36,893 bases of DNA from Thiotrichaceae bacterium (lineage in GTDB: Bacteria; Pseudomonadota; Gammaproteobacteria; Thiotrichales; Thiotrichaceae). Position numbers and translations under genes: made by a program. This document shows, in pieces, positions 12,130-36,893 of this stretch. A model generated the notes under the pieces. The model was not told where the DNA came from. It did no database searches and was given only the letters and a program-made list of their open reading frames with translations. The stretch spans positions 1-36,893 of the forward strand of contig JALXAX010000185.1 in NCBI GenBank assembly GCA_026991755.1, read 5' to 3'. How positions within the stretch are numbered: the first letter of the stretch is position 1; each line of letters starts with the position of its first letter.

Positions 12130-12132
12130 AGT

Positions 12133-12502: not shown

Positions 12503-12508
12503 TTAAAA

Positions 12509-13989: not shown

Positions 13990-13999
13990 CTTATATCTA

Positions 14000-14121
14000 A
14001 GTATTAATGATTTCATATGTATTTGGCACATACTCATGGAACCGAGACTTCAGTCTCGGCTTAACGGGGCTGAAGCCCCGTCTCCAGATGTATGTCATTA
14101 CTTTTGAAACCATTAATACTA
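14000..14121. repeat. Compound palindrome overlapping the copB stop codon
   Basis: The outer arms (AGTATTAATGATTTCA and its near-complement TGAAACCATTAATACT) enclose two tight hairpins, CCGAGACTTCAGTCTCGG (14042-14059) and CGGGGCTGAAGCCCCG (14065-14080). The right arm includes the copB stop codon. It is likely a terminator or 3' end stabiliser, or an inserted palindromic repeat. Confidence 0.6.
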
Positions 14122-14970: not shown

Positions 14971-15005
14971 GATTTTTCTCCAAATATTTCTTAGTTAGTG
15001 GGTGC

Positions 15006-16760: not shown

Positions 16761-16827
16761 CAGTTTTTTTCCTATCTTTTTTGAAATTTAGAATTTTTTT
16801 AGATATAGGAACTGGAAGTTGGAGCTG

Positions 16828-16852
16828 ATGAAGAGAACGAGTAAAAGGTTGG
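16828..16852 (-). promoter_or_regulatory. Possible ECF-type promoter of copA (weaker match)
   Basis: Minus strand CCAACCTTTT followed, 16 bases after AAC, by TCAT. The -35 block is the same as in the two better sites (20510-20534 and 25419-25443), but the -10 block differs from CGAA. The distance to the copA ATG is about 68 bases. Confidence 0.35.
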
Positions 16853-16986
16853 AAATAGTGATATTAAATACAGCTAACACAGGGAAAGCATGACTAAAAA
16901 TATCATTCTAATTACCCACACGTAACTTCAGCGCTGACTTTAATCAATAAATCTGGATTAAAGCGATACGACCAGTTCGAGCAGGA

Positions 16987-17403
16987 TTAAACGAGAGGGG
17001 GTTGTAATTCGGGGGATATGCTACGGGTGTAGTAATTGATATAGCCAGAAACAGGTTTAGTCGAAACCGTTGGCGAAAGTAATTGAATAGTGGGAGTAGT
17101 AAGTGCAGCAGATGCGCCTACACAACTAACACAGCAACCTGAGTCACAGTCCATTGCTGTCATGTCCATATCGGATTCATAACAAGCCATGCTGGGGTCA
17201 TCACAATGCATTTGAGAGCTAGTAATAGCCGTTTCATGCTGAGACTGTAGAGTATCGTGAGTTACCTGATGGTTTAGGTTGTCCGATGTGTTTTTCATTT
17301 CACTCATAGATGCATTTGACATATTGGATGCACACATCGACGCAAACCCTGCTACAGGGAATATGGCGTTAAGCGTTATCAATAAAATCAAAATGCGAAT
17401 CAT
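16987..17403 (-). CDS. Small secreted Met/Cys/His-rich protein
   Basis: 138 residues: a signal peptide (MIRILILLITLNAIFPVAGFA), a mature N-terminal part rich in Met, Ser, His and Asp (MCASNMSNASMSEMK, SSQMHCDDPSMACYESDMDM), then CDSGCCVSC, and a C-terminus ending SISPELQPPLV. I know no named family; Met/Cys/His density and position upstream of copA point to periplasmic copper binding. It shares its plan and PEL(Q/P)PPL tail with the protein at 25741-26085. No clear ribosome-binding site. A CopA-like AACCTTTA block lies about 30 bases upstream. Confidence 0.7.
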   Translation of the reverse strand: MIRILILLITLNAIFPVAGFASMCASNMSNASMSEMKNTSDNLNHQVTHDTLQSQHETAITSSQMHCDDPSMACYESDMDMTAMDCDSGCCVSCVGASAALTTPTIQLLSPTVSTKPVSGYINYYTRSISPELQPPLV

Positions 17404-17457
17404 TGTTTGTTTCTGGTGAAAGTTAACTAAAGGTTAGTGGAAGTGAGAAGCATTTTC

Positions 17458-17695
17458 AACCTAAAATCCTCAGTTAAACAGCCTATAGAGTGATTCTATT
17501 CGGCTGAATGGCGTAGTAAAAAAGGAATTAATGGTTGATCCTTAATGAGTTTTTTACATAGCTAGTCAGCCGAAGAGGGTTGCTCTATAGGCTGTAGCGC
17601 TTTCACTCTATAAGTGAAGATTGATAAAGCTTCTTACTTTAATACTATCAGTAGTTTATTCAATGCTGGAAGCGGTTAACTGAGGAATTTAGGTT
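17458..17695. repeat. 277-bp-type MITE, copy 3 (internal deletion)
   Basis: 238 bp. Both 20-base inverted ends are intact, but about 40 bases present in copies 1 and 2 after CAGCCGAAGA (equivalent to 690-735) are missing. It lies between the small Met/Cys/His protein and the second multicopper oxidase, taking up most of the 362-bp gap. The rest (17696-17765) holds a weak GGGTGG/CCACTC hairpin 3' of the oxidase. Confidence 0.88.
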
Positions 17696-17765
17696 CAAGT
17701 AGCTTTATCACTTTAATGACGAGTGGTTTACGCCACCCGCCATTCTTTTTTACTCTTGTTTTAGC

Positions 17766-20450
17766 TTACTGGATGCGGAAGAAGCCCATCATGCCAGCGT
17801 CTTCATGCTCAAGGATATGGCAGTGATACATATAGTCTCCATAGTTGACTGCTGGGTCAAAGCGACCGATAAAATCAACTGTTTCACCTGGTTGCACTAG
17901 TACCGTATCTTTCCAACCGAGATCAATACCTGTAGCGGGTTGACCATTTCGACTAAGTATTTGCCATTGAATCGCGTGTGCATGGAAAGGATGCGCCATG
18001 GGTGAACGGTTCTGAATAGACCAAATTTCAGTATTACCTTCAGCTAAGTTAATAATCTCATCAATACGGTTCATATCGAAGGCTTTGCCGTTAATAACAA
18101 AGCTCATGCCTCCCATGCCACCGCCGTTGCCCATGCTTCCGCCGTTGCCCATGCCACCGCCGTTGCCCATGCCACCGCCGTTGCCCATGCCACCGCCGTT
18201 GCCCATGCCACCGCCGTTGCCCATGCTTCCGCCGTTGCCCATGCTTCCGCCGTTGCCCATGCCACCGCCGTTGCCCATGCTTCCGCCGTTGCCCATGCCA
18301 CCGCCGTTGCCCATTGCCATCGTCATCACGAAGTTACGAGTTTTAGTTGCATCAGAGGCTACTAAGCGTTCGGTATTAATATCAGCATTGCTAGGTAGGT
18401 TGCTATACAACGTCACGTTATCAGTGGCTTGAGTCGTAATATCAAAACGCATGATGTCCATACGCATACCATTGACTAATGTGCCATTCATTCCACCTCC
18501 ATTGCTCATATTGCTTCCGCCACCCATACCGCTTCCACTCCCCATGCCATTGCCTGTATTCGTACCTGACATTCCCATCATAGGGCTTCCATTAAAGGCT
18601 TTACTGATTAGCATGACTTTGTCGTTTACCGCATATTGAGCAAAGTCGATAACAATCTCAGCGCGTTCTGCTGCACCTAGCATAATGTGATCAACGTCTA
18701 TAGGCTGAGGTAATAAACCCCCGTCTGTTCCAACTACTTTGAAGCTAGAACCATCACTTAATGCAAAGTCATAGCTACGTGCATTTGAGGTGTTGTAGAG
18801 TCTAAAGCGATACTGACGTGTACCCACTTCAAGCTTAGGCAACTCAGCGCCATTAACAAGAATCTTGTCACCTAGCATGCCGTCGTTATCCATCTCTCTA
18901 TCTTTATAAGCAAGCTCACGAACACCGTTAACTTCATCTTTAAAGCGTCGATCCTGAATGAGTACAGGAATGTCGTAATCTCCAGAAGGTAACTTGTTTT
19001 CAGCCACTAACTGTTGGCTAATTGCATCTTCTAATAGATACACGCCAGCCAGCCCGTTATAAACCTGCTCACCTGTTTTCATATCAGGATGCGGATGAAA
19101 CCAGAGTGGTGCAGCGGGTTGCACCATGTTAAAGCTATAGGTTTTACTATTACCCGCAGCCACTGGGAAATCAGGTCCACCATCTTGATCAGCTGGTATT
19201 TTAAAACCATGCCAATGAATCGTAGTTTCATCAGTAAGATTGTTGATCAGATTCAAAGTCATGCTGTCACCACGCTTTGCTTTGATGACGGGAGGGAGCT
19301 GAGAACCGTTATAACGTAACATCGGCGTAGTCCAACTATCACCAGGTACATTAATCGTCACATCAACATTTGGAGTTGCCGTTAGCGTATAAGTAGCGGC
19401 ATTGTTATTAGGATCGCCATCTTCATCGCTCAATACGGGCAAGCGGTTGAAGCTAGGAAGGTTGGTTGCGGCAAGTTGAGCTTGTGTATTATTAGCCGCA
19501 TCTTGGTTGCCCTGATTGAGCTGATCAAAGTAGTCTGTATTGAATCCTAACAGTGCCAGACTAGCTCTTTCGTCATCGCTAATATTACCACTACCAAAAC
19601 GGGCTAGCGTGTTGTTGAGCAAGCGGGTACGTGCTAGACCGTAGTTGTCTTTTTGATTGATTTCATCCAGTTTTCTATTGTTATTATCTTTGTCGGTTAT
19701 CGAAATAGAGATACCTGCATCTTTTCCATCCAGCGTGCCATCTTCAAGGTCTAAAGCACGTTTATCAATCAGCTCGAATACTTGAGAAGGTGTAAGGTTT
19801 AAGCTCTCTGCTTCGTAGGAAAAGCTAATCGCACGGTTGCGGGCTAGTGCTTCTGCTTGATCCGCTGGGGTGGCTGTACTCAAATCACCTATCATAAATA
19901 AAACATCGCCAGAAACGCCCATTGCAGGGTTTGTACCATCAATGAGTTGATCCTGTAGGGTTGCTTTGGCTTCGGCAATAGCTTGGGCGGTAGGTGTACC
20001 TGCGGTGATTTTGTTCTTAACCAGTTTTGCCATTAGTGTTGTTTCTGGCGTTAGCGCGATTGTTTTTCTATCGGCAATAACCGTTTGTAATTCAGCAACC
20101 GTAAAAACAGTCATTAAACCTTTGTCGGATGGATTGACCGTATTGCTGGTAGCCTCGTCGGTATAAGAACCGCCTTGAGTTTCGATAAAGATAGCTTTAG
20201 TGGTATCACTAGGAAGTGTGAAATTATCAAGCTCAAACTTACCTAGTGAGCTAGTACCAGAGGCAATAAGGTTGCCCGCTTCATCGGTAATTTGTGTGGT
20301 AGCGCCATCAATAGGACCTTTAAAAGCACTTCCTAATAATGACGTGGTTGAAGTTGATGGAGTAGTTGTGTCAGACCCTCCACCACAACCTGCGAGTGTA
20401 CTAATGCCAATTGCTAAAGCGACGGCAGTAAATATTTTTGTTCTTTTCAT
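17766..20450 (-). CDS. Lipoprotein multicopper oxidase with Met-Gly-Asn hexapeptide repeats
   Basis: 894 residues from the ATG at 20450 (AGGG 8 bases upstream; the ATG at 20456 is too close to it). A lipobox (STLAGC, C22) is followed by about 330 residues resembling surface-lipoprotein domains (KGPIDGATTQITDEAGNLIA), then a bilirubin-oxidase/CotA-like oxidase: HWHG (412-415), WFHPHP (450-455), HPFHAH (820-825), HCHILEHEDAGMM (876-888). Two Met/Gly-rich blocks lie in the loop before domain 3, including eleven MGNGG(G/S) units (713-778). Expected at the membrane surface, oxidising Cu(I), Mn(II) or phenolics; the substrate is unknown. An ECF-type promoter lies upstream. Confidence 0.9.
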   Translation of the reverse strand: MKRTKIFTAVALAIGISTLAGCGGGSDTTTPSTSTTSLLGSAFKGPIDGATTQITDEAGNLIASGTSSLGKFELDNFTLPSDTTKAIFIETQGGSYTDEATSNTVNPSDKGLMTVFTVAELQTVIADRKTIALTPETTLMAKLVKNKITAGTPTAQAIAEAKATLQDQLIDGTNPAMGVSGDVLFMIGDLSTATPADQAEALARNRAISFSYEAESLNLTPSQVFELIDKRALDLEDGTLDGKDAGISISITDKDNNNRKLDEINQKDNYGLARTRLLNNTLARFGSGNISDDERASLALLGFNTDYFDQLNQGNQDAANNTQAQLAATNLPSFNRLPVLSDEDGDPNNNAATYTLTATPNVDVTINVPGDSWTTPMLRYNGSQLPPVIKAKRGDSMTLNLINNLTDETTIHWHGFKIPADQDGGPDFPVAAGNSKTYSFNMVQPAAPLWFHPHPDMKTGEQVYNGLAGVYLLEDAISQQLVAENKLPSGDYDIPVLIQDRRFKDEVNGVRELAYKDREMDNDGMLGDKILVNGAELPKLEVGTRQYRFRLYNTSNARSYDFALSDGSSFKVVGTDGGLLPQPIDVDHIMLGAAERAEIVIDFAQYAVNDKVMLISKAFNGSPMMGMSGTNTGNGMGSGSGMGGGSNMSNGGGMNGTLVNGMRMDIMRFDITTQATDNVTLYSNLPSNADINTERLVASDATKTRNFVMTMAMGNGGGMGNGGSMGNGGGMGNGGSMGNGGSMGNGGGMGNGGGMGNGGGMGNGGGMGNGGSMGNGGGMGGMSFVINGKAFDMNRIDEIINLAEGNTEIWSIQNRSPMAHPFHAHAIQWQILSRNGQPATGIDLGWKDTVLVQPGETVDFIGRFDPAVNYGDYMYHCHILEHEDAGMMGFFRIQ
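18117..18314. repeat. Tandem repeat, 11 x 18 bp, coding MGNGG(G/S)
   Basis: Eleven in-frame 18-bp units (plus strand GCCACCGCCGTTGCCCAT or with TTCC in place of CACC). Units differ only at the last codon, Gly or Ser, so they are recent duplications and copy number may vary by slippage. Long frames on the plus strand here (PPPLPM repeats) are by-products. Confidence 0.95.
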
Positions 20451-20509
20451 GTGCATAACCCTGTTAGTTTTTAAATTAGCGGTCTGTTTCTACAGACGAC
20501 AGGGTTAAT

Positions 20510-25740: not shown

Positions 25741-26085
25741 TTATGATAGAGGAGGTGGTAATTCTGGAAGAGTAGGGCGACTAATAGCGCCAAGTTTGTA
25801 ATAAGTATTAGCAACAGGAGAGTGGATAAAAGCGGGACTGCTTAGTAAAGCATAAATAATAGAAACGGATAAATGAGCGCAACTACAAGAGCAATTTGCA
25901 CATTGTTTGTCGCAACAATCGTGTTTAGCTTTGGCACTATGGTTGCATGTGTTAGAGGTGTTTGTACGAATTGTGTTTTCTGAAACGGCACTATGCTTTC
26001 CATCACAACTAGGCTGTGCATTACTCGTTAAAGGAGTTAGCAATAAAGAAATAGCAACTAATAGGGAAAAAATCTTTTTTAGCAT
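25741..26085 (-). CDS. Small secreted Cys-rich protein
   Basis: 114 residues: a signal peptide (MLKKIFSLLVAISLLLTPLT, cleavage near SNA-QPS), a His/Cys region (SCDGKHSA, NTCNHSAKAKHDCCDKQCAN, CSCSCAH), a hydrophobic middle and the tail SRPTLPELPPPLS. No named family. The Cys/His cluster suggests metal binding in the periplasm. It has the same build as the protein at 16987-17403. A TTGACA...AACAAT pair with 17-bp spacing lies upstream on the minus strand (26145-26118). No clear ribosome-binding site. Confidence 0.68.
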   Translation of the reverse strand: MLKKIFSLLVAISLLLTPLTSNAQPSCDGKHSAVSENTIRTNTSNTCNHSAKAKHDCCDKQCANCSCSCAHLSVSIIYALLSSPAFIHSPVANTYYKLGAISRPTLPELPPPLS

Positions 26086-26389
26086 AGATGACAGGGGTGT
26101 GACTTAAAATCTGTTTTTGATTGTTACTTCTGGTTAATTTTTTGTCAATATAAAGGGTGAGAAATTTTAGGTTTATAGACGGTTTCCACTGCGGTTCTTG
26201 TACCCCCCATGATGAGGTTTCCTTTTTGTTCTGTTTTATCTATGAATAAACAGATTGAACTGAATGCCCATATCTATCAGCCACAACAAACGGTAGAATT
26301 ACTAAAATAAGCGTTAATAGTCAACTAAACCAATACAATAAAGTAGAGTGAATATACTCATCTCTACAGACAGAACCCAAGGATACAAA
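26086..26389. other. Divergent intergenic region
   Basis: 304 bp between the Cys-rich gene (-) and mod (+). It holds a sigma70-like promoter candidate on the minus strand. A 22-codon frame (about 26249-26317) has no ribosome-binding site and is not called. No repeat seen. Confidence 0.4.
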
Positions 26390-28282
26390 ATGGATAAAAT
26401 CACTGCGAACAGTTCAGAGGCTCAGAGTGCCGATATCGTTGCGGATAATATCGAACAACTCAAAGTGCTATTTCCTGAAGCGTTTACAGAAGATGGGGTG
26501 AATTTTGAGAGCTTGCGTCAACTATTAGGTGATGCGGGTGTGCTGGATGACGGCGAAGAAAAATATGGGCTAAACTGGCATGGCAAGAAACAGGCAAGAC
26601 AAATAGCATTAACACCCTCAACAGGGACATTGCGACCCTGTCCTGAAGAAAGTGTGGATTGGGATACGACACAAAACCTGTTTATTGAAGGCGATAACCT
26701 TGAAGTCTTAAAGCTCTTGCAGAAATCGTATGCGGGTAAGGTGAAGATGATTTATATCGACCCACCGTATAACACGGGTAAGGAATTTATTTATCCTGAT
26801 AAGTATCAGGACAATCTGGATACCTATTTGAAATATACGGGACAGGTTGATGATGAGGGTATGAAGTTTTCCAGTAATACGGAGACAACAGGGCGCAAGC
26901 ATACGAATTGGTTGAATATGATGTATCCGCGTTTGAAGCTAGCTCGGAATTTGCTTAAGCAGGATGGAGTTATCTTTATTTCTATTGATGACAATGAAGT
27001 TGCTAACTTAAAAAATGTATGTAATGAAATCTTTGGTGCTGACAATTTCGTTTCAAACATTGTGTGGCAAAAAAAATATTCTGTATCAAATGATGATCCA
27101 AGTATTGCACCTATGCATGATCACATCTTGGTATACAGGAAGACAGATTTGTTTAAGAGGGGGTTATTTCCACGTACAGAAAAACAATTAAAACGATATA
27201 CAAATATTGATCATGACCCTCGTGGAGACTGGGCATCAGGTGAATATGTTAGTAGTAAAACTAAAGAACAAAGGCCGACACTATGGTATCCAATTATACA
27301 CCCTAAAACAGGTGATGAAGTGTGGCCCGACTCAAAAGCTGTATGGAGATATTCACAAGATAAGCATAAAAAGCTAGAAGCTGAAGGCCGTCTCTTTTGG
27401 GGAATAGATTACTCATATAAGCTCCCAAGACTTAAGCGCTATATTAGTGAAATGAAAGATGGTGTAGTACCTTCAACATGGTGGACATTTAAAGACGCTG
27501 GTCATAATGATGAAGGGCAAAAGGAAACAGCTAAACTACTCGGGAAAAAAATATTTACTACGCCAAAACCCATTAAATTAATTAAGCAAATGCTGATAGT
27601 TGGAACTAAAGAGGATGAAGTAGTTTTAGATTTCTTTGCAGGGTCATGTGCTACAGCACACGCAGTTATTGATTACTCCCAAAAGAAACCTACAAATACT
27701 AACTTTATTATGGTTCAACTTCCTGAACCCTGTTCTGAAAAATCAGAAGCTTTTAGTATTGGCTACAAAACAATTGCAGATATAGGCAAAGAACGCATCC
27801 GCCGAGCCGCCAAAAAAATCAAACAAGAAAACCCAGACTACCAAGGCGACTTAGGCTTCAAAGTCTTCAAACTAGCCAGCTCCAATATCAAAGCATGGAA
27901 CCCTGATAAAACCGACTTGGAGCAAACCCTGCTAGATCATCAAGAACACCTGGTTTCAGGACGCACCGAACAAGATGTATTGTACGAACTGCTGTTAAAA
28001 CGGGGCGTGGATTTAACCGTTCCTATCGAAGCCAAAGAGGTCAATGAAAAAGCCATTTACTCCATTGGCTATGGCGTGTTGTTTGCCTGTCTGGATGAAT
28101 CACTAGCTCATGATGATATTGAAGGAGTGGCACAAGCGATTATCGCATGGCACAAGGCACTCAAGCCCGCGACCGACACCCATGTTTTCTTTCGTGATAG
28201 CGCGTTTGTAGATGATGTGGCAAAAACCAATATGGCGGCTATACTTGAGCAAAATGGTATTCATCATGTGCGGAGTTTATAG
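26390..28282 (+). CDS. mod: Type III restriction-modification system, methyltransferase subunit Mod
   Basis: 630 residues from the ATG at 26390 (AAGGA 6 bases upstream). Beta-class N6-adenine DNA methyltransferase: DPPYNTG (D124-G130) comes first, then the target-recognition region, then the SAM motif DFFAGSCATAHAV (from D414; CA in place of the usual GT), and the C-terminal RIRRAAKKIKQENPDYQGDL typical of Mod. Mod sets the recognition site and is needed by Res. The middle (about 26990-27780) is more AT-rich than the flanks, so the target-recognition part may have been exchanged. No simple repeats for phase variation are seen. First gene of the locus. Confidence 0.95.
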   Translation: MDKITANSSEAQSADIVADNIEQLKVLFPEAFTEDGVNFESLRQLLGDAGVLDDGEEKYGLNWHGKKQARQIALTPSTGTLRPCPEESVDWDTTQNLFIEGDNLEVLKLLQKSYAGKVKMIYIDPPYNTGKEFIYPDKYQDNLDTYLKYTGQVDDEGMKFSSNTETTGRKHTNWLNMMYPRLKLARNLLKQDGVIFISIDDNEVANLKNVCNEIFGADNFVSNIVWQKKYSVSNDDPSIAPMHDHILVYRKTDLFKRGLFPRTEKQLKRYTNIDHDPRGDWASGEYVSSKTKEQRPTLWYPIIHPKTGDEVWPDSKAVWRYSQDKHKKLEAEGRLFWGIDYSYKLPRLKRYISEMKDGVVPSTWWTFKDAGHNDEGQKETAKLLGKKIFTTPKPIKLIKQMLIVGTKEDEVVLDFFAGSCATAHAVIDYSQKKPTNTNFIMVQLPEPCSEKSEAFSIGYKTIADIGKERIRRAAKKIKQENPDYQGDLGFKVFKLASSNIKAWNPDKTDLEQTLLDHQEHLVSGRTEQDVLYELLLKRGVDLTVPIEAKEVNEKAIYSIGYGVLFACLDESLAHDDIEGVAQAIIAWHKALKPATDTHVFFRDSAFVDDVAKTNMAAILEQNGIHHVRSL

Positions 28283-28332
28283 TAAGCGCTACATCATGAT
28301 AAAAACTTCACTGCGATTCAGGTTAAACACTT

Positions 28333-29445
28333 ATGTCCGAAGGTAGAAAAAATCTAAAGCATATTAAAATTAAAGGCTTTAAATCCATTGCTAAACTTGA
28401 TTTGCCAATGGAGCCGCTAAATATTCTTATCGGTGCTAATGGTGCAGGTAAAACGAATCTAATTTCTTTGTTTACGTTCTTGAGTCACTTATCACAAGGG
28501 AAATTGGGAACCTATGTGGAAACAGAAGGCGGTGCTGAGCGATTCTTTCATTTTGGCACACGAAATACTGATAAAATCACACTGGACTTAATGGTAGATA
28601 TCAATAGCTACCATGTTGAGTTTGTAGCAAATCTTGATGATGATTCACTGGTCTTTTCTAAAGAGTATTGCATGATTGATTCATCACGAAGCATCTATTA
28701 TCTTAAACCCAAAAAGGGTGAAAGTGGTTTTACTTCTTTGGCTACAAGTGAACGTGTGCAACGCTATACCAAAGAATACCTTAAAAAGTGCCGTGTTTAT
28801 CATTTCCATGACACAAGTAGTCAGGCTCGATTTAAAAAAACGAATAAAATAACGAATCAACATTATTTAGAAAAAGATGCAGCCAATATTGCTCCTTTTC
28901 TTTATGGACTAAAAAATAGCAAAACAGAAAGCAATCGTAAGGCGTATCAGCAAATTGTTTCTGCCATTCAGGTAGTCGCCCCTTTCTTTCATGATTTCTA
29001 TCTTGAACCTAACGGTGAAGAGGGTGATAGAAATATTCGTCTACGCTGGACGCATACACAATATGATACCCCTTTTAGTGCCAATGTGCTGTCTGATGGT
29101 ACGGCACGATTTATGTGTTTAGCGACGTTGTTTTTACAACCCCCATCACGTTGCCCGGATACGATTATTCTTGATGAGCCTGAGCTAGGCTTGCACCCAG
29201 TAGCCTTGAATATTTTAGCCGATATTATTAAGGCGGTCTCTAAAACAACACAGGTTATTTGTTCAACACAGTCGGTTGAATTTGCAAATTTTTTCCAGCC
29301 AAAAGACTTTATTGTTGTCGATGCCCAAAAGGGTGTTTCCACCTTCAAACGTCTGGATAAAGAACAGCTTGATGGGTGGCTAGAGGAATATGGTATGGGG
29401 GAAATTTGGCGTAAAAACCTCATTGGAGGTCGTCCAGCATGGTAA
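28333..29445 (+). CDS. AAA ATPase (RecF/OLD-like, AAA_21 type) inside the R-M locus
   Basis: 370 residues. ABC/SMC-type ATPase domain: start LKHIKIKGFKSIAKLDLP, Walker A GANGAGKT (34-41), signature-like LSDGT (253-257), Walker B IILDEPELGLHP (278-289), and D-loop/His region CSTQSVEF. No coiled-coil long enough for SMC. This is the type found with TOPRIM-like partners in OLD/PARIS-type and RloA/RloB-type loci. It starts 50 bases after mod and overlaps the next gene by 7 bases. A defence role is inferred from context. Confidence 0.9.
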   Translation: MSEGRKNLKHIKIKGFKSIAKLDLPMEPLNILIGANGAGKTNLISLFTFLSHLSQGKLGTYVETEGGAERFFHFGTRNTDKITLDLMVDINSYHVEFVANLDDDSLVFSKEYCMIDSSRSIYYLKPKKGESGFTSLATSERVQRYTKEYLKKCRVYHFHDTSSQARFKKTNKITNQHYLEKDAANIAPFLYGLKNSKTESNRKAYQQIVSAIQVVAPFFHDFYLEPNGEEGDRNIRLRWTHTQYDTPFSANVLSDGTARFMCLATLFLQPPSRCPDTIILDEPELGLHPVALNILADIIKAVSKTTQVICSTQSVEFANFFQPKDFIVVDAQKGVSTFKRLDKEQLDGWLEEYGMGEIWRKNLIGGRPAW

Positions 29446-30038
29446 GGGTTGGAGTCTCTGTAGAAGGGCTTACAGAAAAGCTATTTATTGAGGTGTGCCT
29501 TGCACCTTATTTTCTCAATAAGAATATGATACTTACGCCTATTTCCCTTGATGGCAATATAAGCGTTGACCGTATCAGGAGTGAACTTAAAAAGTTGCTT
29601 AATAACTTTGATTTCATAACCACCTTCTATGATTTTTATGGCTTCAAGAAAAAAGAGGTAGGTGAAACGAAGGAAAGCTTAGAGAAACGTATTTTAGATG
29701 CTATGCCTGAAAATAGCCGTGAAAGAGTTATCTCTTATATTCAAGTATACGAATTTGAAAGTCTTTTATTCTCTTCCCCAGAAATAATGGAGGATGAAAT
29801 AGGTAAAAAGGGTTTATCCGATTGGGCTACCCATATCCTCGATGCGTTTAATCAAAACCCTGAAGCTATCAATGATTCACCTCAAACAGCCCCTTCAAAG
29901 CGTTTAGAAAAAGAATCAACGTATGTGAAAACACTACATGGGCCTAATATTGCCTTGGCAATTGGTATTGATGAACTACGAAGTCAATGTGAGGGTTTTG
30001 ATGGGTGGATTACTCGGTTAGAAGCGTTAGGTCATTGA
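29439..30038 (+). CDS. DUF4276 protein, putative TOPRIM-like nuclease partner
   Basis: 199 residues. Family signatures: VSVEGLTEKLFIE near the start (E9, E13), FYDFYGF (D65), and YIQVYEFESLLFS (E105, E107), the layout of DUF4276, which is related to TOPRIM/OLD nucleases. Acidic residues could bind metal. The ATG has GGAGG 9 bases upstream, and the start overlaps the stop of the ATPase gene, so the two are coupled. Partner of the ATPase by order and overlap; the activity is not proven. Confidence 0.87.
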   Translation: MVRVGVSVEGLTEKLFIEVCLAPYFLNKNMILTPISLDGNISVDRIRSELKKLLNNFDFITTFYDFYGFKKKEVGETKESLEKRILDAMPENSRERVISYIQVYEFESLLFSSPEIMEDEIGKKGLSDWATHILDAFNQNPEAINDSPQTAPSKRLEKESTYVKTLHGPNIALAIGIDELRSQCEGFDGWITRLEALGH

Positions 30039-30067
30039 ACCTGCCTAAACAAGTAATACTTTTGCGG

Positions 30068-30098
30068 GTCGGATGGCGCTATCGCTTATTCGACCTAC
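30068..30098. repeat. GGTCGGAT...ATTCGACC hairpin repeat
   Basis: GTCGGATGGCGCTATCGCTT is followed by ATTCGACCTAC; the ends GTCGGAT and ATTCGAC pair with one wobble, and GGCGCTATCGCT forms a smaller dyad. It is of the common short intergenic palindrome type. It separates the DUF4276 and res genes. Confidence 0.6.
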
Positions 30099-30138
30099 AT
30101 AGACTTTTAAACACCACTCCTGAAAAAATAAGGATACT

Positions 30139-33100
30139 ATGAAGCTACATTTTGAAGATAACTTAGATTTTCAACAAAAAGCTATTGCAGCCGTTGTTGA
30201 TTTATTCAAGGGACAGGAAATTACCCAATCTGAGTTCTCTGTATTAGCAAGACCTGATAGCGGTAAGCAGCAAGCGCTTTCAGGTCTGGTGGAAACGGAT
30301 TTAGGCGTAGGTAATCGCTTAAACCTGCTGGATGATGAGTTACTTGATAATCTAAAAGCGATTCAGTTACGCAATGGTTTACGCCCCAGCGATGCCTTAC
30401 GCAGTGGTGATTTTACCGTTGAAATGGAGACGGGAACGGGTAAAACCTACGTTTACTTGCGAACTATTTTTGAGTTGAACCGTGACTATGGTTTTAGCAA
30501 ATTTATTATTGTTGTTCCCTCCGTTGCCATTAAAGAAGGCACGTATAAAACGCTAGAGATAACCCGAGAACACTTTGAAGGCTTATACCCCAAAGCGAAG
30601 GGTTATGATTATTTTCTCTATGATTCCACCAAGCCGGGTTTGGTGCGTAACTTTGCTACCAGTTCCAATATTCAGATTATGGTGACTACGGTGGGAGCGA
30701 TTAATAAGAAGTCGGTCAATAATCTGTATAAAGAAAATGAGAATACAGGGGGTGAAAAGCCCATTGAGCTGGTGAAGGCAACCAACCCAATTATTATTGT
30801 GGATGAACCGCAAAGTGTGGACGGCGGTTTGAACGGTAAAGGCAAAGAAGCACTGAGTGCAATGAACCCTTTATGTACCTTGCGCTATTCGGCTACGCAT
30901 ACCACTACACATCACATGGTTTATCGTTTGGACGCGGTTGATGCTTATGAACGGGGGTTAGTAAAACAAATTGAGGTGGCTTCTGCTGAAGTGGAAGGGG
31001 CGACTAACAAACCTTATGTCAAACTCCTATCAACACATAATCGTAGAGGCTCTATTACGGCAAAAATTGAGCTGGATATTCAACGCGGAAAGAACCTGAA
31101 ACGTGCCGTACTGACGGTTGAAGATGGGGATGATCTTGAGCAATTGGCTAATCGTTCACTCTATGAAAATATGCAAATAGGTACGATTAATTGTGCCAAA
31201 AGTGGCAAAGATGGTAAAGGCAATGCGTCTATTGAGCTAAAAGGCCCTGGGGTTGATAAGTTGTTACAGGCGGGTGAAGAACATGCGGGGGTTGATCAGG
31301 ATCAGTTAAAACGTTTAATGATTCGTCGCACCATTAAGGAGCATCTGGATAAGGAGTTATTCTTTGCGGCTAATGGTAATAAAATTAAGGTCTTGAGTTT
31401 ATTTTTTATAGATCGGGTGGAGAATTATCGTCAGTATGATGACGAGGGCAATGCTGAAAAAAGCAAGTATGCGTTGATGTTTGAGGAGGAGTATCAAAGG
31501 CTGGCTAACTCACCTGATTACCAAAGCTTGTTTAAAGAAATTGATCTTGAAACGAATGCATCAGAAGTGCATGAGGGTTATTTCTCCATTGATAAAAAAG
31601 GTCATTATCAAGCGCTGAAAAGAGGTGCGAAAGGTCAGTTATTAGCAAGTAATGATGATAATTTAGAGCGTGCTTACAACCTGATTATGAAGGACAAAGA
31701 GAAATTATTGAGCTTTGATACCAAGCTTAAATTTATCTTTTCTCATTCGGCATTAAAAGAGGGCTGGGATAATCCCAATGTGTTCCAGATTTGTAATTTT
31801 TCTGCTGTGCAAACCGAACGCTGGCGGCGACAAACCATAGGTCGCGGCTTGCGTTTATGTGTCAATCAACAGGGTGTTCGTATTAAAGATCGCAGTATTA
31901 ATACGCTCACGGTTATCGCGAATGAATCCTATGAGCAGTTTGCAGATGCGCTTCAGCGAGATATAGAGGCCGATTTACAGATTACTTTTGGCATTGTTGA
32001 AGGGCATCAATTTGCGAATATCTCGGTGCAAGGAGAGGGTGGAAAGCCTGTTCCATTAGGGGTTGAACAATCAGAAACGGTATTGGCTTATCTTAAAGAA
32101 CAAGGCTATGTGGATGCGAAAGGCAAGGTACAAGATACGTTGCGTGTGGCACTTCGGGACGGCATATTGGAGCTACCTGAAGCTTTTAGTGAGCAACATG
32201 AGGAGATTGTATCAATCCTCAAGAAACTAGCGGGTAAACTGGATATTAAAGATGCAGATAAGCGCAAGACTATTCGTACTCGTGAAGCCATTTTGCAGAG
32301 TGAGGAATTTAAAGCACTTTGGGATCGCGTTAAATATCAAACCACCTATCGTGTTGAGTTTGATAATGATACGTTGATTGAGAAAGCGGCAAGGGCTTTC
32401 ACTGAGTCGCATACCATTACTAAAACACGGCTTTATTTTCGTAAAGCGGATATTGAAATTGGTCGGGGTGGTGTGACAACTGATAACGAAACCGTATCCG
32501 CTCGCACCACGATACAAGAAGATGATATTGATTTACCTGATTTGATTACGGAGCTACAGGACAAAACCCATTTGACCCGCGCCAGTGTGGTACAAATTTT
32601 GATAAAGAGTAATCGGCTGGAGGATTTTAAGAGAAATCCGCAAGAGTTTATCGACCTGGCAGCGGAAGCGATTAATCGCACCAAACGCATGATGTTGGTG
32701 GATGGGATTAAATATACTCGTATAGGTGATGAACATTTTTATGCTCAGGAGTTATTTGAACAAAAAGAGCTAAAAGGTTATCTGGAAAATACGTTAGAAG
32801 CACAAAAGTCCGTTTATACGCATATCGTTTATGACTCTCAAGGGGTTGAGAAAAAGTTTGCAGAAGCGCTGGAAAGGAATGAATCGGTCAAGGTGTATGC
32901 CAAACTGCCTGCATGGTTTACTATTTTCACCCCGCTAGGGTCATATAACCCCGATTGGGCTGTTCTTGTTGATAATGATGGGTCAGAAAAGCTGTATTTT
33001 GTGGTAGAGACCAAAAGCAGTTTATGGCTAGATGATTTACGCCATGCGGAAGGTGGGAAAATCAAATGTGCTGAGGTGCATTTTGATGTGCTTGCTGAGG

Positions 33101-33174
33101 AAAATGGAATGGATAACCCTGCAAGTTATATAAAAGCATCAACCGTTGATGACATGATGAAGCATGTGGATTAA
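30139..33174 (+). CDS. res: Type III restriction endonuclease subunit Res
   Basis: 1011 residues; SF2 helicase plus C-terminal nuclease that cuts with Mod after ATP-driven movement on DNA. Walker A METGTGKT (96-103), motif II DEPQ (222-225), motif III RYSATHTT, motif VI QTIGRGLRL, and a PD-(D/E)xK nuclease at the end (PD939WAVLV ... VVE957TK959SS). The length is normal and the frame intact. AAGGA lies 6 bases before the ATG. The reading frame ends near a converging permease gene. Confidence 0.95.
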   Translation: MKLHFEDNLDFQQKAIAAVVDLFKGQEITQSEFSVLARPDSGKQQALSGLVETDLGVGNRLNLLDDELLDNLKAIQLRNGLRPSDALRSGDFTVEMETGTGKTYVYLRTIFELNRDYGFSKFIIVVPSVAIKEGTYKTLEITREHFEGLYPKAKGYDYFLYDSTKPGLVRNFATSSNIQIMVTTVGAINKKSVNNLYKENENTGGEKPIELVKATNPIIIVDEPQSVDGGLNGKGKEALSAMNPLCTLRYSATHTTTHHMVYRLDAVDAYERGLVKQIEVASAEVEGATNKPYVKLLSTHNRRGSITAKIELDIQRGKNLKRAVLTVEDGDDLEQLANRSLYENMQIGTINCAKSGKDGKGNASIELKGPGVDKLLQAGEEHAGVDQDQLKRLMIRRTIKEHLDKELFFAANGNKIKVLSLFFIDRVENYRQYDDEGNAEKSKYALMFEEEYQRLANSPDYQSLFKEIDLETNASEVHEGYFSIDKKGHYQALKRGAKGQLLASNDDNLERAYNLIMKDKEKLLSFDTKLKFIFSHSALKEGWDNPNVFQICNFSAVQTERWRRQTIGRGLRLCVNQQGVRIKDRSINTLTVIANESYEQFADALQRDIEADLQITFGIVEGHQFANISVQGEGGKPVPLGVEQSETVLAYLKEQGYVDAKGKVQDTLRVALRDGILELPEAFSEQHEEIVSILKKLAGKLDIKDADKRKTIRTREAILQSEEFKALWDRVKYQTTYRVEFDNDTLIEKAARAFTESHTITKTRLYFRKADIEIGRGGVTTDNETVSARTTIQEDDIDLPDLITELQDKTHLTRASVVQILIKSNRLEDFKRNPQEFIDLAAEAINRTKRMMLVDGIKYTRIGDEHFYAQELFEQKELKGYLENTLEAQKSVYTHIVYDSQGVEKKFAEALERNESVKVYAKLPAWFTIFTPLGSYNPDWAVLVDNDGSEKLYFVVETKSSLWLDDLRHAEGGKIKCAEVHFDVLAEENGMDNPASYIKASTVDDMMKHVD

Positions 33175-33208
33175 CCGAGCTTTCGTGATCCAGCTGCGTT
33201 TTTTGGTT

Positions 33209-33245
33209 CACCTGAATCTGCATTGAAGTCACGGATTCAGGGTTC
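33209..33245. terminator. Inverted repeat between converging res and permease genes
   Basis: CCTGAATC and GATTCAGG are exact complements across about 15 bases. No T tract follows on either strand, so it may be a repeat or a weak bidirectional terminator. Confidence 0.35.
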
Positions 33246-33251
33246 AATCAA

Positions 33252-34511
33252 TTATATTTTACGATAATGCTTCAAGAGCAACCGTAAACTAGAAGCCACA
33301 ATAATAATCAACCCTGCCCATGCTACCCAGAGAGATAGCATTTGTTGATGCGTACTGACTTGGGTTTGTAAATCAATTCCGTTGTTTTCAACGTAGGCAT
33401 CCAACATTAACCCAATAACAATCGCTACTATGGCAACGCCCGATAAGTAGGCCATTAACGAACGACTGCCCAACTCTTTTTTGATCACACCTAATGATCC
33501 TATATTACTAGCAGGACCGGCGAGTAAAAACACCAAAACGGTGCCAGGTGATATACCACTGAGCAGTAAACCCGCTGCCATTGGAGTAGAGGCGGTAGCG
33601 CAGACATACATGGGAATACTAATGGCTATCATCACTAACATGGCGGGCAAACCACTGCCCCATTGTGCCAGGAAATCGGCGGGAATCCATGTTTGGATGG
33701 CAGCAGAGAACGCCAAGCCGATCAGCATCCATAGAATAATAGATTCCAGAAGGTCGGTAAAAGCATAGCGAATCCCAGACAGAGTGGTAGACAATAGGGT
33801 GTTCTGTGCTGTTGTTTGATGGCTATCGTGGGAGGTGGAATCTGAGCTACAACATGAAGCTGTTTCCACAGTGGCTTCTGTACTGCAACATGAGCTGCTT
33901 TCTGCCACAGGTGCGGGATCAGAACTACAGCATGAAGCTGTTTCTACAGTGGCTTCAGTACTACAGCATGAGCTACTTTCTGCCACAGGTGCGGGATCAG
34001 AACTACAACATGATGTGGCTTGTTTCGTGTTCTCTTTTTCTGATGAGCAACAGCTTTCACTACTTGTGTTAAGTGACTTTTTGCCATCAGTTGATTGTTC
34101 TGTTTTACCTACTAATAAACCAGCGGTGATGGCCGATACAATCGCCGCAACAGGTCGTGTGATTGCCATTAAAGGCCCCAGCAGGGCATAAGTCATAATG
34201 ACAGAATCAACACCCGTTTCAGGGGTGGAAATAAGAAAGGAAGTGGTGGCTGATTTGGATGCACCCGCATTACGCAAGCCTAAAGCAGCCGGTAATACTC
34301 CACAGGAACAAAGTGGAAGTGGTGCGCCTAGCAAAGCGGCTTTGAGCACGGGTATAAAACCTTCCCCTTTTAAATGTTTTTCAAGCCAAGAGGTGGGTAG
34401 TAGATTTTTCATTAACCCTCCAATGACCAAACCTAACACTAGCCACGGCGCTGCTTCAAGAGAGAGTGCCAAGAAGTTTTCAAAAAACGGGATGAAATTA
34501 AGAGCGTTCAT
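33252..34511 (-). CDS. Permease of the SO_0444/ArsP (DUF318) family with repeated di-cysteine linker
   Basis: 419 residues; inner-membrane permease thought to export Cu/Zn or arsenicals. Two membrane halves flank a long cytoplasmic linker. Family motif PLPLCSCGVLPAALGLR (C68, C70), then TSFLISTPETGVDS, and in the second half PMYVCATASTPMAAGLL and AGPASNIGSL. The linker (about 150-225) carries six Cys-Cys pairs, four of them in a 26-residue unit repeated twice. Overlaps the preceding lipoprotein gene by 4 bases (ATGA). The transported metal is not certain. Confidence 0.88.
   Translation of the reverse strand: MNALNFIPFFENFLALSLEAAPWLVLGLVIGGLMKNLLPTSWLEKHLKGEGFIPVLKAALLGAPLPLCSCGVLPAALGLRNAGASKSATTSFLISTPETGVDSVIMTYALLGPLMAITRPVAAIVSAITAGLLVGKTEQSTDGKKSLNTSSESCCSSEKENTKQATSCCSSDPAPVAESSSCCSTEATVETASCCSSDPAPVAESSSCCSTEATVETASCCSSDSTSHDSHQTTAQNTLLSTTLSGIRYAFTDLLESIILWMLIGLAFSAAIQTWIPADFLAQWGSGLPAMLVMIAISIPMYVCATASTPMAAGLLLSGISPGTVLVFLLAGPASNIGSLGVIKKELGSRSLMAYLSGVAIVAIVIGLMLDAYVENNGIDLQTQVSTHQQMLSLWVAWAGLIIIVASSLRLLLKHYRKI
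33858..34013. repeat. Tandem repeat, 2 x 78 bp, in the permease linker
   Basis: Two adjacent 78-bp copies encode SCCSSDPAPVAES-SSCCSTEATVETA, residues 167-192 and 193-218, nearly identical at DNA level. A partial third unit (SCCSSD) follows. Plus-strand frames here are by-products. Confidence 0.9.
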
Positions 34512-34927
34512 AAATGCTTAGTATTCGTGTGCTGTCTTATGTCATGGATGTGGTATTTCACTAGGATGGTTGATGATGTTGTCTGTACTCCTTGCAGAGT
34601 ACCATCAAAATGCCACTGTTTACTATTTCCATATTGGCGGTGGGTTCTTGCCTTCATGCTTCTGATTGTTTTGCCATTAGTATCAGTAAGAATGATGTGA
34701 ATATGGCCTGGGATTTTCACAAGTTTGTTGCCAGGTGATCGTTTTCTAACAGCTCCACTTACTTTAAGGCCTTTCGCAGTGGTACGAATCGTTATTTTGC
34801 TGAATAAGACAAGGCCTGCATCTTGAATACTAAGGTTGGAAGGGGAGACGTGTGTTGGAGAGCAGGCAACAATTAAAGGCATGAGTAATAAAGATAGGAG
34901 TGATAGCCTAACGGATAGTGATTTCAT
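34508..34927 (-). CDS. Small lipoprotein, hypothetical
   Basis: 139 residues with a lipobox (PLIVAC, C22). The mature part is beta-rich (LVLFSKITIRTTAKGLKVSG, GHIHIILTDTNGKTI, SSTILVKYHIHDI) and His-rich near the end (KYHIHDIRQHTNTKHL). No named family. GAGG lies 9 bases before the ATG. First gene of a pair with the permease, suggesting a metal-related role. Confidence 0.7.
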   Translation of the reverse strand: MKSLSVRLSLLSLLLMPLIVACSPTHVSPSNLSIQDAGLVLFSKITIRTTAKGLKVSGAVRKRSPGNKLVKIPGHIHIILTDTNGKTIRSMKARTHRQYGNSKQWHFDGTLQGVQTTSSTILVKYHIHDIRQHTNTKHL

Positions 34928-34958
34928 TGAATTGTCCTCTTTTCTGGTGATAGGATTC

Positions 34959-35120
34959 TAGTACATCAACCCCGTTTAAAATGACTATATCTGCAAAAAG
35001 TTAACAGCTAGGTTGGTGCAGAGGCACGAAGCCCAACACAGCAGTGTTTGTTGGGGTTCCTTCGTCACCGCCAACCTTGTCTTTCAATAAACCGAGACTT
35101 TAAACGGGTTGATGTACTAG
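34959..35120. repeat. Nested palindromic element
   Basis: Outer inverted repeat CTAGTACATCAACC(C)CGTTTAAA and TTTAAACGGGTTGATGTACTAG, about 160 bp overall. Inside, 35010-35077 is a GTAGGTTGGG-type palindrome (AGGTTGG ... CCAACCT). The outer left end is related to the flank of the structured element at 6150-6177. Confidence 0.7.
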
Positions 35121-35142
35121 TGCTCCAACAAGTTAGGTTTAT
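35117..35142 (+). repeat. CTAG-ended repeat, copy at the RND pump
   Basis: CTAGTGCTCCAACAAGTTAG followed by GTTTAT; the same end motif as 9766-9793 and 1895-1868. Confidence 0.6.
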
Positions 35143-35156
35143 AGACAACATTGTCA

Positions 35157-35192
35157 CAAAAAAGGAGGATAGATACCATTGATCTATCCTCC
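35157..35192 (-). terminator. Rho-independent terminator of the RND pump gene
   Basis: On the minus strand GGAGGATAGAT pairs exactly with ATCTATCCTCC across a 7-base loop and is followed by TTTTTT. It lies 26 bases past the stop codon of the CzcA-type gene. Confidence 0.9.
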
Positions 35193-35218
35193 CTCTATCT
35201 CCTGTTATATCAAGTTAT

Positions 35219-36893
35219 TTATGTCAAATACTTACGTTTTGAAAACACTTCATATAGCGCAGGTAACACAAACAACGTCAATATCGTTGACGATACTAGC
35301 CCACCGATAACCACGGTTGCCAATGGCTTTTGCACCTCAGAACCCACACCCGTTGCCAGTAGCATTGGGATAAGCCCTAACGCAGCAATGGAGGCGGTCA
35401 TTAATACGGGGCGCAATCGAGATAATGCGCCTTCATAGACGGCTGTATTGACATCCGCACCGCCTTCGCGCTTTTGGTTGATCGCATTCACCATCACCAC
35501 ACCATTTAATACGGCAACACCAAACAAGGCGATAAATCCTATGGAACCTGGCACGGAGAGGTATTGTCCGGAGATCGACAAGGCGACTATTCCACCAATG
35601 AGTGCCAAAGGTACATTGATCATAATTAATAAGGCTTGACCAATGGAGCTAAATGCAAAATATAGCAGCAGGAAGATTAGACCCAGCGACAGCGGTACGA
35701 CAATCATCAAGCGCTTTTGGGCACGTTCCTGATTTTCGAATTGCCCACCAAATACCACGGTATAACCCGGTTGCAGGTCAATTTCCTTATTTATCCGCTC
35801 ACGTAATTCAGCGACTAATCCACCCATGTCACGCCCTTCAACATTGGACTGAATTACCACCCGCCGTTGTACATCATCACGACGTATTTGTGGGGGCCCC
35901 GATTCAATACCAACACTAGCGACTTCACGGAGTTTTACCCATGCACCTTGTGGTGATTCAAGCACTAGGTCGCGTATTGCCTCCACGTTACTTCGGTACT
36001 TTTCTGCCAAACGAATATTAATGTCATACCGTTCATTACCGCGAATAACCTGACCCGCTTCGACACCACCAATAGAGTCTGCAACCAGTGACATGACTTG
36101 TCCAACAGGGATGCCATAACGCGCCAATGCCTCTCTATCTGGCTTGATGACTAACTGCGCTTCTCCCGCAATTTGCTCCATTTCTACGCCGCGTGTGCCT
36201 TCGGTTTTTTTCAGTAGCGCTTCAATTTCCTTCCCCGTTTTTGCCAGAGTCTCTAAATCCGCACCAAATAGTTTTACGGCTAATTGAGCTTTTACTCCTG
36301 ACAACAATTCATCCACACGAGTAGCAATAGGCTGTGAAAAGGAGAACAGTAAACCAGGGTAGACAGACATTTTCTCTTCCATCAATACTTGCAGTTCTTT
36401 ACGATTCGATGCACTAGTCCATTCAGAGGCAGGTTTTAACCCAATGAAAATCTCCACATTGGAAACGGGTTCAGGGTCACCCCCAATTTCTGCACGTCCA
36501 ATTCGGGATGAAGCATAGAGCACTTCGGGGAAAGTCATGACTGCTTGTTCCAGTTTTTGCGCGACTTTAAGTGAAGTACTTAAGCTGGATGAAGGAGCAA
36601 GTGTGACGCGAACGTTAATCGTGCCTTCCTCAAGTTCGGGTACAAACTCCGTACCTAATGTGGTCGCTAACCACAACGAGCCTGCAAACATAGCCACGGC
36701 TATAGCAACCACAAGCCAACGTAATTTAGTGGCGGCTTTGAGTAAAGGCCGATAGACAAAGTTCAACACTTTCATTACCGGGCTTTCGCGGTGGGTAACA
36801 TGGCTTCTAAACATCCAGCTTGCCAACGCAGGGACAACCACTAACGCAACCAGTAACGATGCCAGCATGGCAAGTACAATTGAAATAGCCATC
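35219..36893 (-). CDS. Heavy-metal RND efflux pump, CzcA/CusA type (3' part only)
   Basis: C-terminal 557 residues of an HAE1/HME RND transporter of about 1,030; the 5' part lies beyond the window, and the methionine at 36892 is internal. Visible: FRSHVTHRESPVMKVLNFVY loop, TTLGTEFVPELEEGTINVRV, the second periplasmic part (FSFSQPIATRVDELLSGVKA, LAVKLFGADLE), and the last helices (VPLSLGLIFLLLYFAF, LALIGGIVALSISG, SRLRPVLMTASIAALGLIPM) of the HME group. It expels Cu/Ag or Co/Zn/Cd from the periplasm; the metal-site residues of the N-terminal half are not visible. Probably preceded by its membrane-fusion partner. It ends in a strong terminator. Confidence 0.93.
   Translation of the reverse strand, partial: MAISIVLAMLASLLVALVVVPALASWMFRSHVTHRESPVMKVLNFVYRPLLKAATKLRWLVVAIAVAMFAGSLWLATTLGTEFVPELEEGTINVRVTLAPSSSLSTSLKVAQKLEQAVMTFPEVLYASSRIGRAEIGGDPEPVSNVEIFIGLKPASEWTSASNRKELQVLMEEKMSVYPGLLFSFSQPIATRVDELLSGVKAQLAVKLFGADLETLAKTGKEIEALLKKTEGTRGVEMEQIAGEAQLVIKPDREALARYGIPVGQVMSLVADSIGGVEAGQVIRGNERYDINIRLAEKYRSNVEAIRDLVLESPQGAWVKLREVASVGIESGPPQIRRDDVQRRVVIQSNVEGRDMGGLVAELRERINKEIDLQPGYTVVFGGQFENQERAQKRLMIVVPLSLGLIFLLLYFAFSSIGQALLIMINVPLALIGGIVALSISGQYLSVPGSIGFIALFGVAVLNGVVMVNAINQKREGGADVNTAVYEGALSRLRPVLMTASIAALGLIPMLLATGVGSEVQKPLATVVIGGLVSSTILTLFVLPALYEVFSKRKYLT

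What the first reader, a model, noticed from the sequence alone, without database searches (positions are those of the whole stretch)
26390..33174. Type III R-M locus with an AAA ATPase and DUF4276 pair between mod and res
mod, AAA ATPase, DUF4276 and res run in one direction. The middle pair overlaps by 7 bases and is a unit. AAA plus TOPRIM-like partners are known from OLD/PARIS-type and RloA/RloB systems, the latter found inside type I R-M loci. Here the nesting is in type III. The pair could be a second layer that senses phage attack on, or failure of, the R-M system.
Basis: partly seen in the sequence, partly recalled or inferred. Interest (0 to 1): 0.68.

Follow-up and report, generated by a model that had tools for sequence, protein, structure and literature searches.

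The report
Nuclease pair inside type III restriction operon
A two-gene ATPase and nuclease cassette, of a kind already listed as a candidate phage defence, sits between the two genes of a restriction system; its relatives often live elsewhere, and the gap it occupies is a common parking place for extra genes, many of them defence-like.

Summary
In detail: mod, an ATPase gene, a DUF4276 gene (7-base overlap) and res run in one direction at 26390-33174. The pair matches PADLOC's HEC-01A/HEC-01B (E 1e-136 and 2e-56), a candidate defence published as 'Hma-embedded', so pair and embedding are known in kind. DUF4276 is predicted (pLDDT 96.9) to be a Toprim nuclease nearest the OLD catalytic region, with most of OLD's metal-binding set present. 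The ATPase is an SMC/Rad50/OLD-type head with intact motifs. Nesting is not chance: 10 of 86 surveyed pair loci lie between type III mod and res, at several places on a tree; 3 more lie inside BREX. But 60 of 86 have no restriction-type gene matched nearby, and no other member of the window's own clade is nested between R-M genes. From the other side, 20 of 28 type III mod-res gaps hold extra genes (RhuM, Fic, Schlafen-like, GmrSD, NsnABC and others); ATPase-DUF4276 pairs fill 3. Best reading: an autonomous sensor-nuclease cassette captured in an accessory slot of a type III operon. Sensing failure of the R-M system is possible but untested. New member of a known kind.

The parts
26390..28282 (+). 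mod: type III DNA methyltransferase, 630 aa (DPPY motif seen in the translation)
28333..29445 (+). ATPase of the pair, 370 aa: SMC/Rad50/OLD-type ABC ATPase head; HEC-01A of PADLOC; invariant in 60 sequences: G34 N36 G37 G39 K40, S254 G256, E282, T312 Q313 S314
29439..30038 (+). DUF4276 protein, 199 aa: predicted Toprim nuclease plus helical domain, nearest the OLD catalytic region; HEC-01B of PADLOC; invariant in 67 sequences: E9 E13 D65 Y67 E105 E107 R155 K164
30068..30099 (+). dispersed palindromic (REP-like) repeat in the 100-bp gap before res; six copies in the genome
30139..33174 (+). res: type III restriction helicase-endonuclease, 1011 aa, with ResIII and C-terminal endonuclease domains

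Best explanation
The middle pair is a self-contained two-gene defence cassette of the HEC-01 kind: an OLD/SMC-type ABC ATPase that acts as sensor and keeper, with an overlapping gene for a small Toprim nuclease (DUF4276) that is the effector. Most likely the ATPase holds the nuclease inactive, recognises a phage product or phage-caused lesion, and on ATP-driven rearrangement lets the nuclease cut nucleic acid, stopping the phage directly or by stopping the cell. It was captured as cargo in the mod-res gap of a type III R-M operon, a slot that takes many kinds of accessory genes, so that it is read with mod and res and moves with them. Shown here: the gene order, the pairing, the family matches, the predicted fold with its conserved acidic residues and lysine, the recurrence, and the turnover of the slot. 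Inferred: the sensing and release steps, the substrate (DNA or RNA), co-transcription and translational coupling, and any benefit of the linkage.
For: HEC-01A/HEC-01B matches over nearly full length. ATPase directly upstream of DUF4276 in 82 of 86 loci; of 63 loci with an ATPase of 340-400 aa, the ORFs overlap in 60, counting from the first possible start. DUF4276 model pLDDT 96.9; best solved match the C-terminal catalytic region of B. pseudomallei OLD, 6nk8, Foldseek E 3.0e-3 and Z 10.4, rmsd 4.2 over 177 residues, with other OLD entries at 9.2-7.6 and GajA at 7.3. OLD's metal ligands and lysine are E400, E404, D455, D457, T506, E508, K562 (PMC6755086, passages); DUF4276's invariant residues include E9, E13, D65, E105, E107, K164 in the same order. 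ATPase model pLDDT 92.9, nearest SMC/Rad50 heads, then PtuA; its profile finds OLD 6p74 first (2.9e-15) and also AriA and GajA. Mobility and capture: 10 of 86 loci between type III mod and res, 3 in BREX, 1 in type I, 60 with no hit (PADLOC identities for representatives); on a 75-row tree the type III label (9 rows) needs 5 changes, and the window pair lies in a 16-row clade with no other nested row. Slot turnover: among the window's nearest Res relatives the gap holds GmrSD (69% identity), Fic (63%), another ATPase-DUF4276 pair (66% and 63%, over partial Res matches) or nothing (60%).
Against: No activity has been measured here or found in print. The second Asp of OLD's DxD is Tyr (Y67) in the window's subfamily, OLD's T506 would be E105, and the D-to-E spacing differs (42 residues against 53), so the metal site is not identical. 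No Foldseek match reached E 0.001; an uncharacterised protein, 2p62, scores like OLD (Z 9.2), and GajA at 7.3 is barely above unrelated folds at 7.0-7.2. No residue-level structural alignment was printed, so residue matching is by order and spacing. A profile search of solved structures with DUF4276 found no relative.
Confidence: 0.72

Rival explanations
1. Guard of the R-M system: the ATPase senses inhibition of the type III enzyme (or the phage anti-restriction protein itself) and frees the nuclease to kill or arrest the cell, as PrrC does for EcoprrI and PARIS does for Ocr.
For: Recurrent nesting in type III, type I and BREX loci; same general architecture as PARIS, whose ATPase senses Ocr and releases a Toprim nuclease that cuts tRNA (PMC9122126, passages; PMC12409363, passages). 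A 2025 review groups PrrC and PARIS as guardians (PMC12707154, passages), and a 2026 survey proposes ATPase-linked nucleases as backup effectors in BREX (PMC12839542, passages).
Against: 60 of 86 loci have no R-M-type gene matched nearby; no other row of the window's clade is nested between R-M genes; DUF4435 of AriB is not matched; PARIS itself does not need type I R-M or BREX in the cell.
Confidence: 0.2
2. Direct DNA-degrading partner: the OLD-like nuclease acts on phage DNA, for example on ends made by Res, and so strengthens restriction rather than killing the cell.
For: Closest predicted fold is the OLD catalytic region, whose isolated form degrades linear DNA in vitro (PMC6755086, passages); co-location with an endonuclease that makes ends.
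Against: The pair mostly occurs without Res in our survey; the D-to-Y change at position 67; no substrate data.
Confidence: 0.2
3. Passenger or addiction cassette: the pair was inserted in the operon by chance or for its own maintenance and has no function tied to phage.
For: Occurrence on plasmids, once next to vapBC, and beside genes that look like housekeeping genes; nothing here measures defence.
Against: Exact placement between R-M genes at several separate places, conserved catalytic-type residues, and PADLOC or abortive-infection matches for many of the other cargoes in the same slots.
Confidence: 0.08

Closest known systems
HEC-01 (PADLOC-DB; Hma-embedded candidate, Payne et al. 2024 preprint, not read, known only from passages of PMC12988326, PMC10855318 and PMC12255303)
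   Same: Both proteins match HEC-01A and HEC-01B models over nearly full length, adjacent, same strand; the HEC class was found by embedding in another defence locus.
   Different: The host locus here is a type III mod-res operon, not Hma; 60 of 86 relatives have no R-M-type gene matched nearby.
PARIS (AriA + AriB)
   Same: Separate OLD/SMC-type ATPase and small Toprim nuclease genes; AriA is found by the ATPase profile (8ux9, 5.4e-9).
   Different: The effector is DUF4276, not DUF4435.
OLD nucleases and Gabija GajA
   Same: OLD-type ATPase; Toprim plus helical domain fold (OLD Z 10.4 to 7.6, GajA 7.3); E, E, D, E and K of the active site by order.
   Different: ATPase and nuclease are two genes; no GajB helicase; second Asp of DxD is Tyr in the window's subfamily, though three more distant DUF4276 proteins found before res carry D-R-D or D-Q-D (their profile link to the window's subfamily is weak, probability 28.8%, E 0.0006, but all three hit Pfam DUF4276).
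TOPRIM-linked OLD-ABC modules in BREX (PMC12839542, passages)
   Same: ATPase-Toprim module inside a modification-based defence locus; three of our loci are in BREX.
   Different: Here a type III R-M operon; a search of that paper's main text for 'type III restriction' found nothing.
Type I R-M loci with embedded genes (DarTG2 between hsdS and hsdR, PMC12255303; PrrC in EcoprrI, PMC12707154; passages)
   Same: A second defence module nested between R-M genes.
   Different: Type I host locus and unrelated cargo.

Membership tests
HEC-01 | ATPase matching HEC-01A | tested here: met
   PDLC04175 9.6e-137, residues 6-368 of 370
HEC-01 | DUF4276 partner matching HEC-01B, adjacent and co-directional | tested here: met
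   PDLC04188 2.4e-56, residues 1-197 of 199; 7-base overlap
HEC-01 | PADLOC's own system rule (gene distance, any need for an Hma host locus) | not testable with these tools
   The rule file is not held; the host here matches type III MTase and REase models
HEC-01 | anti-phage activity | not testable with these tools
   needs a phage challenge
PARIS | AAA_15 or AAA_21 above 32 or 27 bits (rule in PMC9122126) | tested here: met
   AAA_21 98.6 bits, AAA_15 58.3 bits
PARIS | DUF4435 partner above 27 bits | tested here: not met
   the partner matches DUF4276 only, at E up to 0.001
OLD class 1-3 / Gabija | ATPase and Toprim in one chain | tested here: not met
   two ORFs in different frames
OLD class 1-3 / Gabija | Toprim plus helical domain fold | tested here: met
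   predicted model against 6nk8: Z 10.4, rmsd 4.2, 177 aligned; prediction only
OLD class 2 | full metal and lysine set E, E, D-x-D, T-x-E, K | tested here: inconclusive
   E9, E13, D65, E107, K164 in order; DxD is D-x-Y and T is E105; no residue-level superposition
Gabija | GajB helicase gene next to it | tested here: not met
   neighbours are Mod and Res
RloA/RloB | RloB domain partner | tested here: not met
   only DUF4276 reported by Pfam at E up to 0.001; that Pfam holds an RloB model is recalled
Type III R-M | Mod and Res of type III, mod first, same strand | tested here: met
   MTase_III 1.2e-228, REase_III E=0, PF19778 7.3e-34
R-M guard (PrrC-like) | constant linkage with the guarded system | tested here: not met
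   17 of 86 loci flanked on both sides by R-M or BREX genes, 60 with no hit
R-M guard (PrrC-like) | activation by inhibition of the R-M enzyme | not testable with these tools
   needs an experiment

The most novel reading that the evidence does not exclude
The gap between mod and res of type III R-M operons is a general socket for second-layer effectors: 20 of 28 gaps examined hold accessory genes, and two type III subfamilies share some of the same kinds (RhuM, Fic, GmrSD-like proteins, ATPase modules). On this reading the cargo is functionally coupled to type III restriction, with the HEC-01 pair as a version that fires when Mod-Res is blocked or when Res has cut, so that type III R-M would be a layered system with exchangeable last lines of defence.
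Probability: 0.22. Interest if true: 0.68.

Novelty: new member of a known kind. Interest (0 to 1): 0.4.

Why it matters
It adds type III R-M, by several separate placements, to the host loci in which ATPase-Toprim modules are embedded. It gives a concrete, testable picture of DUF4276 as an OLD-like nuclease. It also shows that the mod-res gap is a turnover slot for accessory genes, which is a cheap place to look for new defence systems.

Tried and rejected
Viral contigs: a scan with the window's DUF4276 protein alone (close relatives only) gave 4 pattern matches and no relative. Phage records: no match. The pair is thus not shown to be phage-borne.

Flank comparison: ten relatives' stretches around the Cu/Zn transporter homologue shared only that gene with the window, so no empty insertion site was found. 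Megablast of the flanks against plasmids found two short matches only.

Promoter and terminator scan: fewer sites than in shuffles, so nothing was built on it. The AAA_21 label 'putative AbiEii toxin' was not taken as evidence of a toxin-antitoxin pair. Organism: unnamed; a methane-monooxygenase search was negative but its control rang nowhere, so it says nothing. The pair as a fixed part of the second type III subfamily was considered and rejected: 0 of 7 mod-res gaps in the sample hold it, although seven loci found from the pair's side (L007, L039, L044, L050, L054, L064, L072) are of that subfamily.

Literature: full-text searches for DUF4276, for type III R-M with embedded AAA/Toprim and for RhuM with type III restriction found no paper. 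HEC-01 gave 5 papers, four plainly unrelated by title, one on Desulfovibrio prophages not opened. A search on mod and res gave 2,684 papers of which I saw the 20 listed and passages of one. RloA with RloB gave one paper, listing only. The library lacks bioRxiv and many journals, so these are not proof of absence. The 2020 ABC-ATPase classification paper is not held.

Four of them (L073, L079, L083, L085) were dropped because the ORF caller did not recover DUF4276. Seven of 12 plasmid records were read. 'No hit' means that none of 27 R-M or defence queries (29 less the pair's own two) matched within about five genes at E 1e-8; it is not a full annotation, and some no-hit loci do lie beside other defence-like genes (vapBC in L006, an AIPR-family gene in L010, an HD-domain protein in L023). 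In the tree L005 was labelled as having no R-M although HsdR was later found beside it, rows with one-sided hits (L017, L026, L027) also carry that label, and the tree was the quick one. In L094, counted as an empty gap, the mod region holds several tandem mod-like ORFs.

Full report
What is there. Four genes run in one direction: mod 26390-28282, an ATPase 28333-29445, DUF4276 29439-30038 (7-base overlap) and res 30139-33174. Pfam and PADLOC identify a type III methyltransferase, an AAA_21-type ATPase, DUF4276, and a type III restriction helicase with an endonuclease domain. The two middle proteins match HEC-01A (9.6e-137) and HEC-01B (2.4e-56) of PADLOC-DB. HEC stands for Hma-embedded candidate (PMC12988326 and PMC10855318, passages); the source preprint of 2024 was not held and not read.

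The nuclease. An alignment of the window protein with 66 of the 80 genome loci gave a model with mean pLDDT 96.9. Its best solved match is the C-terminal catalytic region of OLD (6nk8: Foldseek E 3.0e-3; Z 10.4, rmsd 4.2, 177 residues), followed by another OLD and an uncharacterised protein, 2p62, at 9.2; GajA at 7.3 is hardly above unrelated folds. No Foldseek match reached E 0.001. In OLD, E400, E404, D455, D457, T506, E508 and K562 bind metals or act in catalysis (PMC6755086, passages). DUF4276 keeps E9, E13, D65, E105, E107 and K164 invariant in 67 sequences, in the same order. The spacings E-E (4 and 4), E-D (56 against 55) and E-K (57 against 54) are close; D to the second E is not (42 against 53). 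It has Tyr for the second Asp, and E105 where OLD has T506. Three more distant DUF4276 proteins, found before res in L100, L107 and L116, carry D-x-D; their profile link to the window's subfamily is weak (probability 28.8%, E 0.0006), though all three hit Pfam DUF4276. The function is inference from a prediction, not a measured activity.

The ATPase. The model (pLDDT 92.9) is an SMC/Rad50-type head (best Z 20.8) with retron and Septu PtuA at 18-19; a profile search finds OLD first and also AriA and GajA. Walker A (GANGAGK), signature (LSDG) and Walker B (LDEPELGLHP) residues are invariant or nearly so in 60 sequences (motif names recalled).

Where the pair lives. The collection scan kept the best 80 of 579 relatives. 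With 7 of 12 plasmid records, the window and two genomes of its family, 86 loci could be read; four of the 80 were dropped because the ORF caller missed DUF4276. Twenty-seven R-M or defence queries were matched within about five genes. Between type III mod and res: 10 (window, L007, L012, L033, L039, L044, L050, L054, L064, L072; in L072 the ATPase was not recovered). Inside BREX: 3. Inside type I: 1. Other R-M-type genes on both sides: 3 (L008, L011, L047). One side only, other defence genes, or weak or opposite-strand hits: 9. No hit: 60 (recounted). Some of the latter lie beside genes that look like housekeeping genes, judged by eye from the protein starts (guaB and guaA in L018, secD and secF in L023, L042 and L067, glmS in L069), three Pseudomonas copies lie beside tRNA-Leu and queA, and a few lie beside other defence-like genes that were not among the queries (vapBC in L006, AIPR in L010).

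More than chance. If a type III system is present in about one genome in ten and a genome has about 3,500 gaps, a random insertion falls between mod and res about 3 times in 100,000; 10 of 86 is far above this (inference; the rate is rounded up from 24 of 369 genomes for one subfamily and 8 of 369 for another). On a tree of 75 pairs the type III label (9 rows) needs 5 changes (shuffled mean 8.7, 0 of 500 as low), so nesting is both repeated and partly inherited. The window pair sits with L023 (67% identity) and L024, both without a hit, inside a 16-row clade in which no other row is nested between R-M genes. In that clade L017 has a C5-methyltransferase-like gene two genes downstream, L026 and L027 lie near other defence genes, L014 and L019 have weak SNF2-type hits, and ten rows have none. 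Capture by the window's R-M operon is therefore most simply separate from the other cases.

The slot. In 369 genomes, 24 carry Res at E up to 1e-60. Its 28 match rows are 26 loci with the window (two rows are pieces of one gene or of a split contig), all examined. In 21, mod stands before res on one contig: 5 gaps are empty and 16 filled. Contents: an ATPase-DUF4276 pair 3 (window, L100, L107; partners of the last two DUF4276 at 1.8e-33 and 7.5e-29), RhuM 4, RhuM-Fic with two others 1, HATPase_c_4 proteins with or without the Schlafen AlbA_2 domain 3, Fic 1, GmrSD 1, ORF6N 1, HAD with small genes 1, unknown 1. Set aside: three with res first (L097, L111, L112), two without mod on the stretch (L116, L117). 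A second type III subfamily (Res of L007) gave 8 loci in the same 369 genomes; 7 have mod before res: 3 empty, 4 filled with RhuM, Fic, AbiJ_NTD4 plus DUF559, and an NsnABC set plus one unknown; none of the 7 holds an ATPase-DUF4276 pair. Together 20 of 28 gaps are filled and 3 hold such a pair.

Mechanism. I commit to an autonomous sensor-nuclease cassette captured as cargo. PARIS is the nearest worked example: the ATPase senses an anti-restriction protein and the Toprim nuclease is released and cuts tRNA (PMC12409363 and PMC9122126, passages), and it does not need type I R-M or BREX in the cell.

Known or new. Embedding of second defences in R-M and BREX loci is in print (PMC12255303, PMC12839542, PMC12707154, passages), and the pair is in PADLOC. 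I did not find a paper on this pair inside type III R-M, or on the mod-res gap as a cargo slot, in the searches (no paper; 20 of 2,684 seen as a list); the main preprint could not be read and may contain it. Hence: new member of a known kind.

Noticed in passing
L116 (G251:C126) 426-4066: Two ATPase-plus-small-protein pairs in tandem (AAA with DUF3226, then AAA with DUF4276) directly before res; a mod of this genome lies near the end of another contig.
   Followed up: partly
L093-L115, L130-L137: The mod-res gap of two type III subfamilies holds RhuM, Fic, Schlafen-like, GmrSD, ORF6N, HAD, AbiJ-like and NsnABC genes; close Res relatives differ in cargo.
   Followed up: yes
L040, L043, L048 near 8000-10700: In three Pseudomonas genomes the pair lies beside tRNA-Leu(CAA) and a queA-like gene; in L023, L042 and L067 it lies near secD-secF-like genes, in L023 also beside a tgt-like gene. 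Possibly a recurrent integration neighbourhood (names by eye).
   Followed up: partly
L076, L078, L088: The pair lies inside BREX loci between PglX and PglZ; L088 has PglX-type genes on both sides of it.
   Followed up: partly
L026, L027: The pair sits behind an argS-like gene (by eye) in an island with a reverse-transcriptase protein (PADLOC DRT), a UvrD-type helicase and, in L026, an AbiLi-like ATPase.
   Followed up: no
window 7166-20456 and 25741-36892: The R-M locus is set in a metal-resistance region: P-type ATPase, multicopper oxidases, CopB, a weakly CopL-like protein, an SO_0444-type Cu/Zn transporter and an AcrB-type pump.
   Followed up: partly
window 30068-30099: A palindromic repeat between DUF4276 and res, with five further copies in the genome; it can fold into a hairpin.
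   Followed up: partly
L100 (G307:C67): mod is interrupted by an in-frame stop while the pair behind it is open.
   Followed up: no
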